A stretch of DNA of 64,000 bases, from positions 30,794,988 through 30,858,987 of the forward strand of contig NW_023998414.1 in NCBI RefSeq assembly GCF_014805625.2. The letters run 5' to 3'. Made by a program: the position numbers and the translations under genes. This DNA is from Glossina fuscipes (taxonomy: Eukaryota; Arthropoda; Insecta; Diptera; Glossinidae). How positions within the stretch are numbered: the first letter of the stretch is position 1; the number at the start of each line of letters is the position of its first letter. Positions 29,790 to 31,081 of the stretch are shown here, piece by piece. Below the pieces are notes generated by a model. The model was not told where the DNA came from. It worked only from the letters and a program-made list of their open reading frames with translations, and ran no database searches.

Positions 29790-29872
29790 TTAAACTGCTT
29801 TTGATGTTGCTTCTGGCATCCAACGTAACATCTCACGACGCCAATTTATATTATTATACTCTATGTTTTTTA
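29790..29872 (-). CDS. Sh: Shaker cassette A, putative third exon (C-terminal extension)
   Basis: On the - strand a strong acceptor (TTTTTTATTTTCTTTCAG) is followed by TA-AAA-AAC and an open frame to TAA at 29790-29792. Joined to the phase-1 donor after the tail exon (31072), the frame continues past the tail stop as LLVKNIEYN, then WRREMLRWMPEATSKAV. Joined directly to the S6 exon (also phase 1), it would give LVKN instead. The cassette B counterpart at 54381-54478 shares RWMPE-x-T-x-KAV and the start TAAAAAA. Conservation of frame between the two copies supports coding. Use in a transcript is inferred, not shown. Confidence 0.6.
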
Positions 29873-31071
29873 CTGAAAGAAAATAAAAAAGCAATTCTTA
29901 CGCGTTTACCAAAAAGTTTCTTTTACTACAAAAAAAAAAAAAAAAAATTAAATAAATAACAAGCAATAAAAATATACCGCAAATGTTTTCAAATATATCG
30001 CAAGTATTAGGTAGAATGCATATATCGGCAACTGATAGTTGCTTAATATTTTAAACGATTTGCCAGAAAAATTTGGGTAATACATGTACAACTCGTTTAA
30101 TATAGCGTCGAGGAAATGCATATAACATACATTTTACTAGCACTTTTCAATGAATAATCGAAGTATATATGGATTTCTTCTTGATAAGAGAAGGGAGAAT
30201 AATATTTTTTAATACTGATGACGGATTGAATATAATTCTTCTCATTGGAAGATTACATGAGAGATATATTAGATATGTGCTAGCTAGTACCTCCCACAGC
30301 TCCCATAGCAGTAGCTTCAGTAGATTGTAGATTATACATTTTATTTTAAAATCATGGCTTTGATATCAGAACATTAGCTTCAAGACCAGCCATCAGGTTA
30401 CGCTCAATATTAAACTAAATCAGTTTAAATGTTTTGTCCATAATTATTAAAAAACTACTCATAAATAAAACGAAAGTATATAAATGTGTATTTCTTATTA
30501 TACCGTCGTAGATCTACTAATATATATTTATACTAATTTTAGTCTTTGTCAGTCCGTCCAACTATTGTCAAGCAATAAATATTTCAATTGAATATAGCTC
30601 TCGCTGCCAGTTCAGGCGAATGGATAGTTTTTTTACAGATGATCTTATGTAGAATCAGTTTCTTATAGTCACATTGCCGCGATTCCGCGAAACGGCGAAT
30701 CCTATGTACTATATCTACTATAACTATAGTAAAGAAGTTAGCGTTCTCCTCCTTTGAGAATGGTATGTTTATGTACATATCACAAGCTTGTTGCTTCATC
30801 ACATTTTCTATCTTATCTCATGCCCAAATGCCTAGATGAAAATTTCGTGATCTGGCAAACTGAATTCGAGCTAGTGAATTTGAAAGGACAATGATATATT
30901 TGATGTAAACGTGTCCATAATGTTAGCAATAAAAATATATTTAATATTGACTTTTTAATACTTGGCACTTTTTAAGGATATTATTAGGAGTATCATAAGA
31001 TAATTATAGAAAAAAAGAGATTGTAGCTAATTGAGAAAAGATTTGGTGAAAACTATTTCAAGAAAACCTAC
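29873..31071 (-). other. Putative intron between Shaker A tail exon and third exon
   Basis: It starts at the GTAGG donor next to the tail stop and ends at the CAG acceptor at 29873. It has an A-run at 29930-29947 (+ strand) and otherwise ordinary AT-rich sequence. Confidence 0.5.
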
Positions 31072-31081
31072 CCAGTAGTCA
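31067..31081 (-). promoter_or_regulatory. Stop codon and adjoining 5' splice site (cassette A)
   Basis: In sense: TGA-CTACTGG|GTAGG. TGA followed by CTA is a known leaky stop context. The ten bases TGACTACTGG and the following GTA are identical in cassette B. Confidence 0.65.

What the first reader, a model, noticed from the sequence alone, without database searches (positions are those of the whole stretch)
29790..31081. Conserved in-frame extension beyond the ETDV stop in Shaker cassette A
The tail exon ends TGA-CTA-CTGG directly before a 5' splice site. A strong acceptor at 29873 opens a frame in the matching phase, giving a 29-residue extension that ends WMPEATSKAV before TAA. UGA-CUA is a known readthrough-prone context. 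Readthrough would bury the ETDV PDZ ligand inside the chain, which could switch channel anchoring to Discs-large-type scaffolds. The sequence shows the phases, sites and frame; readthrough itself is inference.
Basis: partly seen in the sequence, partly recalled or inferred. Interest (0 to 1): 0.9.

Follow-up and report, generated by a model that had tools for sequence, protein, structure and literature searches.

The report
Hidden tail behind Shaker's stop codon
In a tsetse fly, both alternative ends of the Shaker potassium-channel gene carry a leaky-type stop codon followed by a conserved hidden tail, which would bury the tag that anchors the channel at synapses if ribosomes run past the stop.

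Summary
The window is the 3' part of Shaker from a tsetse fly (both C-terminal tails match Glossina fuscipes models). Cassette A ends ETDV-TGA-CTA-CTGG directly before a 5' splice site, and the exon from 29872 continues the phase, for 29 residues in all. The unreported part is that the upstream alternative cassette B (59502-59116) ends identically, TGA-CTA-CTGG|GTAAGT, and has its own extension exon (54478-54381) in the same phase: IRWMPETTTKAV against LRWMPEATSKAV. The cassettes are old duplicates: 10 of 25 four-fold sites are identical in the S6 exon, and 10 of 13 shared codons before the stop differ. Yet the ten bases from the TGA on are identical, and after masking of simple sequence the extension block is the best DNA match between the two downstream regions. 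Database proteins from a Drosophila-like and a lower-fly-like source read SIETDV-W-LLGKCW, consistent with the same TGA and donor. Two Glossina gene models include the extension exon, bypassing the stop by splicing. I judge the extension coding (about 0.9) and readthrough the likeliest route (about 0.7). A phase-matched skip of the tail exon is the main rival. Readthrough itself and the PDZ switch are untested.

The parts
31450..31640 (-). cassette A S6 exon ([20 protein letters not shown]...SCSYMPGAL), ends in phase 1
   Evidence: tblastn with recalled D. melanogaster Shaker; exon edges
31072..31350 (-). cassette A tail exon, ends SIETDV-TGA-CTA-CTG-G directly before the donor GTAGGT
   Evidence: translation identical by inspection to the end of the G. 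fuscipes model P0002
31079..31081 (-). UGA stop of cassette A
31072..31078 (-). post-stop CTACTGG (leaky-context CUA plus exon end of the donor), identical in cassette B
29873..31071 (-). predicted intron A within the second reading frame (GTAGGT...TTTCTTTCAG)
   Evidence: no transcript data
29790..29872 (-). extension exon A: (G)TA-KNIEYNNINWRREMLRWMPEATSKAV-TAA
   Evidence: also in Glossina gene models P0127 and P0185
60056..60246 (-). cassette B S6 exon ([20 protein letters not shown]...SCPYLPGTL), ends in phase 1
59116..59502 (-). cassette B tail exon, ends SIETDV-TGA-CTA-CTG-G directly before the donor GTAAGT
   Evidence: translation identical by inspection to the end of the G. fuscipes model P0052, which has one more Val at the exon start, as from an acceptor 3 bases upstream
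59123..59125 (-). UGA stop of cassette B
54479..59115 (-). predicted intron B within the second reading frame
   Evidence: inferred from phase and paralogy; no transcript data
54381..54478 (-). extension exon B: (G)TA-KKTLCAIYWPCCSIRWMPETTTKAVIKFNLI-TAA
   Evidence: tblastn hit of extension A, E 4e-6; sequence and frame

Best explanation
Each of the two alternative 3' cassettes of this fly Shaker gene ends in a leaky-type UGA-CUA stop placed 7 nt before the last exon junction, and is followed by a separate 3' exon that continues the frame. Most ribosomes stop after ETDV and make the normal PDZ-binding channel. A fraction reads UGA as an amino acid, crosses LL(V) and adds 29 (A) or 34 (B) residues carrying RWMPE(A/T)T(S/T)KAV. 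The ETDV ligand is then internal and should no longer dock in Dlg/PSD-95 PDZ domains, so extended subunits would be unanchored or anchored through the new tail. Shown here: the anatomy, the phases, and conservation of the stop context and of the extension between the two cassettes. Inferred: use of both junctions in mRNA, readthrough itself, its rate, and the anchoring effect (which I put at about 0.45).
For: Both tail exons end TGACTACTGG before a donor (GTAGGT, GTAAGT). The pattern GARACNGAYGTNTGACTACTGG matches twice in the window, both exact with 3 mismatches allowed, and never in 100 shuffles. Silent sites between the cassettes are near saturation: 10 of 25 four-fold sites identical in the S6 exon, and 10 of 13 shared codons in the last 15 before the stop differ. 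Extension A finds extension B between the cassettes in matching phase, both starting TAAAAAA after AG. The motif scores 54 against a maximum of 30 in 60 shuffles of the 27.5-kb interval. The 7 base changes in its 36 bases fall at codon positions 1,1,3,3,1,3,3 and give conservative residues (Monte Carlo p 0.003 from A, 0.007 from B). After masking of simple sequence, this block is the best DNA match between the two post-tail regions (37; next 28; maximum 35 in 300 resamples). P0241 (closest of 243 fetched proteins: Drosophila subpulchrella P0013, 97.8%) and P0130 (highest identity to another named fly: Bradysia P0066, 66%, tied in score with Aedes P0071) read SIETDV-W-LLGKCW. W at the annotated stop is most simply UGA read with a TGA=W table (inference). 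UGA CUA gives readthrough in fungal and HeLa reporters (PMC4207609, passages), and UGA-CUAG in HEK-293T cells (PMC4132726, passages including part of the abstract).
Against: There are no RNA-seq, footprint or peptide data. A phase-matched skip of the tail exon is open, and both Glossina models that hold the exon avoid the stop by splicing (2 of 240 proteins examined). No listed full-length Shaker carries the extension (0 of 120 listed of 263 hits), though 90% clustering can hide isoforms. Between A and B only the last 12 aligned residues, the start VK and possibly a Trp are alike, and the frame of B ends 6 codons later. Without masking, A/T-rich matches outscore the block, which at 40 lies below the maximum of 46 in 100 shuffles. 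Extension B's acceptor is weak (27.9th percentile), although B's S6 and tail acceptors are about as weak (29.7, 25.0). The base after CUA is C, not the G of UGA-CUAG. No notable RNA structure follows the stop (z -0.5 and -0.9 against 200 mononucleotide shuffles). The codon test used a block first found by protein similarity. If the intron were retained, readthrough would add only 6 (A) or 23 (B) other residues.
Confidence: 0.7

Rival explanations
1. The extension is a normal alternative terminal exon reached by splicing: the S6 exon (or an internal donor in the tail exon) joins it directly, giving a short channel that lacks both ETDV and the stop. No readthrough occurs.
For: S6 exons A and B end in phase 1, like the tail exons, so S6-to-extension is open in frame. 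G. morsitans model P0127 joins ...DIMDLDD to VKNIEYNN..., and G. pallidipes model P0185 reaches KNIEYNN... through other sequence.
Against: It does not explain why CTACTGG past the stop, which would be untranslated, is identical in two near-saturated duplicates; part of it is donor sequence, however. No examined protein joins ...LPG[TA]L directly to the extension (0 of 240). The two models use different, odd joins, as expected of gene finders forced round a stop (inference); I saw no transcript support for them.
Confidence: 0.2
2. The downstream exon is only a spliced 3' UTR exon. The conserved block is an RNA-level element (for example a regulator binding site) and is not translated.
For: A 15-base identical run within the block (CGTTGGATGCCAGAA); no peptide data; the middle of the extension is not alike in A and B.
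Against: Phase and open frame are kept in both copies. Changes avoid second codon positions and are conservative. The leaky-type stop context is conserved too. In 29400-31800 the only Rfam hit at gathering threshold lies in the S6 exon; extension exon B was not scanned.
Confidence: 0.08
3. Chance: an open frame behind a good splice site in AT-rich DNA.
For: A 27-codon open frame is not rare at about 70% AT (my estimate, about 1 in 8); the unmasked DNA comparison does not single the block out.
Against: The paralogous match in the same phase was not reached in 60 shuffles at protein level or 300 resamples of masked DNA; the exon occurs in two other Glossina models.
Confidence: 0.02

Closest known systems
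Conserved stop-codon readthrough genes of Drosophila and Anopheles (Jungreis 2011, recalled; Jungreis 2016, PMC5100048, passages; PMC4528330, passages)
   Same: UGA stop with C next, stop conserved, downstream frame with signs of protein-level constraint, long introns; CAGCAGCA within 250 nt 5' of the stop occurs 3 times in cassette A
   Different: The second frame is split by a predicted intron 7 nt after the stop and exists in two paralogous copies; cassette B has no CAGCAGCA; no notable stem-loop. Their curation generally assigned a coding signal to alternative splicing when the second frame holds an exon break or strong 3' splice site and the stretch before it scores below zero, so this layout could be missed.
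UGA-CUA(G) readthrough genes of mammals (OPRL1, OPRK1, MAPK10, AQP4; LDHB, MDH1)
   Same: UGA followed by CUA, kept at the nucleotide level (passages)
   Different: Next base C instead of G; extension in a separate exon; a fly ion channel
Shaker A/B C-terminal splice variants and their 'ball and chain' binding to PSD-95 (PMC10527868, PMC7000920, passages)
   Same: By length, the same two 3' variants, short A and long B, with identical terminal 'ball'
   Different: The known variants change chain length before the ball; the proposed extension would cap the ball so that it is no longer terminal

Membership tests
Conserved stop-codon readthrough gene | Stop codon and leaky context conserved | tested here: met
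   TGACTACTGG identical in both near-saturated cassettes; consistent W-LLGKCW in P0241 and P0130, whose DNA was not seen
Conserved stop-codon readthrough gene | Protein-level constraint downstream of the stop in the same frame | tested here: met
   Paralogue comparison only; the unmasked comparison was uninformative; PhyloCSF across species was not run
Conserved stop-codon readthrough gene | Coding signal not explained by alternative splicing | tested here: inconclusive
   Phase permits skipping; conserved CTACTGG argues against it; two Glossina models splice round the stop
Conserved stop-codon readthrough gene | Footprints, reporter activity or peptides beyond the stop | not testable with these tools
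   No expression data available
UGA-CUAG motif class | CUAG directly after UGA | tested here: not met
   CUAC in both cassettes; the shorter UGA-CUA motif is met
Shaker (Kv1) C-terminus | S6 and ETDV PDZ ligand | tested here: met

The most novel reading that the evidence does not exclude
All Diptera may carry a translational switch on Shaker anchoring, older than the A/B cassette duplication and kept in both copies. A spliced second frame behind UGA-CUA makes a fraction of Kv1 subunits whose PDZ ball is capped, layering readthrough on top of the splice-controlled ball-and-chain clustering. Readthrough frames split by an intron just past the stop could be a class that scans on unspliced 3' UTRs have missed.
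Probability: 0.4. Interest if true: 0.8.

Novelty: new member of a known kind. Interest (0 to 1): 0.65.

Why it matters
Shaker is the founding voltage-gated potassium channel, and its ETDV end is a well-known PDZ ligand. A conserved leaky-type stop that caps this end in both 3' variants would add translational control to channel clustering. It would also point to a layout, an intron a few bases past a leaky stop, that readthrough surveys can overlook. It can be tested directly in Drosophila.

Tried and rejected
Chance open frame: rejected because of extension exon B. Stimulatory stem-loop after the stop: none notable. The unmasked DNA comparison of the two post-tail regions was led by an A/T-rich match (47; 100 shuffles reached 46), and the extension block itself scored 40, within the shuffle range (mean 32.2, maximum 46); the unmasked protein-level comparison was likewise led by a low-complexity match (63; 6 shuffles up to 48). 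I then masked simple sequence, and the block came first. CAGCAGCA, enriched in fly readthrough genes, occurs only upstream of stop A, within its Gln-coding stretch, so I give it little weight. Fly DNA in the viral or prokaryote collections: none for the stop pattern; the S6 peptide gave none in viral contigs and one hit in a bacterial record (L001), a potassium-channel-like stretch with a different C-terminus, not used.

Papers. Searches pairing Shaker with readthrough or read-through listed 15 of 15, 16 of 17 and 15 of 20 papers; I saw none whose listing concerns Shaker readthrough. A search on translational readthrough with potassium channel listed 2 of 2, neither about it. PMC11251722 names Shaker and readthrough in separate passages, Shaker for low translational efficiency. 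The word Shaker does not occur in the main texts of PMC5100048, PMC3840789, PMC4528330, PMC4999894 and PMC8417969 (term counts); the gene symbol Sh was not searched for. Supplementary lists, Jungreis 2011 (not held) and FlyBase were not seen, so Sh may already stand on a readthrough list.

Full report
What is there. The window holds the 3' part of a Shaker gene on the - strand. A tblastn with the D. melanogaster protein (recalled) finds two C-terminal cassettes, each an S6 exon and a tail exon ending ETDV: B at 60246-60056 and 59502-59116, and A at 31640-31450 and 31350-31072. The translated tails are identical by inspection to Glossina fuscipes models, A to P0002 and B to P0052, so the window is from a tsetse fly, fuscipes or a close relative. 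By length, the cassettes correspond to the known short (A) and long (B) Shaker C-terminal splice variants, which share the terminal PDZ ligand (PMC10527868 and PMC7000920, passages).

The finding. Cassette A ends SIETDV-TGA-CTA-CTG-G, then GTAGGT. The exon beginning at 29872 continues the frame and yields LLVKNIEYNNINWRREMLRWMPEATSKAV, then TAA.

Cassette B ends SIETDV-TGA-CTA-CTG-G, then GTAAGT. Searching the window with extension A returns RWMPETTTKAV at 54434-54402 (E 4e-6), between the cassettes. It lies in an exon-like stretch beginning TAAAAAA after AG, as in A, and is open in the same phase: VKKTLCAIYWPCCSIRWMPETTTKAVIKFNLI. So the whole unit of S6 exon, tail exon and extension exon exists twice.

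Is it conserved? The cassettes are old. In the S6 exon, 28 of 59 shared-residue codons differ and 10 of 25 four-fold sites are identical; in the last 15 codons before the stop, 10 of 13 shared-residue codons differ. Against this background, TGACTACTGG is 10 of 10 identical. At 40% site identity, seven matching post-stop bases would have a probability of about 0.002 (my arithmetic; the last three also belong to the donor site, and the 40% rests on 25 sites). The extension block scores 54 against a maximum of 30 in 60 shuffles of the 27.5-kb interval; its seven base differences avoid second codon positions and preserve residue class (Monte Carlo p 0.003 from A, 0.007 from B, with assumed base frequencies). 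That block was first found by protein similarity. A DNA comparison of the two post-tail regions, with simple sequence masked, also ranks it first (37; next 28; maximum of 300 resamples 35). Without masking it did not stand out: A/T-rich matches led with 47, and the block's 40 lay within the range of 100 shuffles.

Other flies. Of 240 proteins examined from two searches (120 listed of 263 hits; 120 listed of 1313), two carry the extension: P0127 (G. morsitans) with 27 residues and P0185 (G. pallidipes) with 26, all as in the window; both reach it by joins that avoid the stop. A third search gave 4 proteins from 8 candidates; two end at ETDV and two run past it: P0241, nearest to Drosophila subpulchrella (97.8%), and P0130, with highest identity to Bradysia (66%) and an equal score to Aedes albopictus; both read W-LLGKCW. 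The listed Drosophila proteins end at ETDV, so W is most simply UGA under a TGA=W table, and LLGK fits CTN-CTN-GGN-AAR, the same donor. Three models (P0059 and P0062 from sandflies, P0065 from a mosquito) end RHNSALA. A splice in phase 0 onto an exon beginning TAA would give exactly this end, but that too is inference.

How it probably works. Termination at ETDV gives the PDZ-binding channel. Readthrough of UGA-CUA gives a subunit with ETDV internal. UGA CU(A) readthrough was seen in fungal and HeLa reporters (PMC4207609, passages) and UGA-CUAG readthrough in HEK-293T cells (PMC4132726, passages). Here the fourth base is C, so efficiency cannot be assumed. No notable downstream structure was found. 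If the intron were kept, readthrough would add LLGRFS (A) or 23 residues (B) instead.

The main rival is splicing. S6 exons also end in phase 1, so a skip of the tail exon is open in frame. Conservation of CTACTGG, which is coding only under readthrough, favours readthrough; it is not decisive because part of it is donor sequence. Acceptors in cassette B are weak for all three exons (S6 29.7, tail 25.0, extension 27.9 percentile), so extension B's weak acceptor is not a strong objection.

Limits. The window's own assembly could not be searched. No expression data exist here. Whether Sh already stands on a published readthrough list could not be determined: Jungreis 2011 is not held, supplements were not readable, and FlyBase was not seen.

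Noticed in passing
31547-31654: Rfam K_chan_RES (RF00485, potassium channel RNA editing signal), 55.2 bits (cut-off 51), mostly inside the cassette A S6 exon. Cassette B was not scanned.
   Followed up: no
59502-59505: Tandem acceptor CAAG|TAG|GTCAAC before tail exon B; Glossina models P0046 and P0052 read LPGTLVGQHL, as from the upstream AG, adding a Val.
   Followed up: partly
54479-60266: The three acceptors of cassette B (S6, tail, extension) score low for a pyrimidine tract, while the tail and extension acceptors of cassette A score high. This may mark regulated choice between cassettes.
   Followed up: no
P0059, P0062, P0065: Sandfly and mosquito Shaker models ending RHNSALA without VSIETDV, consistent with an alternative donor joined to an exon that starts with a stop such as TAA.
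   Followed up: no
P0001: Anastrepha obliqua model strings the B tail into the A cassette in one 806-aa chain, with the S6 segment twice; possibly a model artefact of the tandem cassettes.
   Followed up: no
P0106: A partial krill (Meganyctiphanes) Shaker-like protein ends SIETDVL, one residue past ETDV.
   Followed up: no
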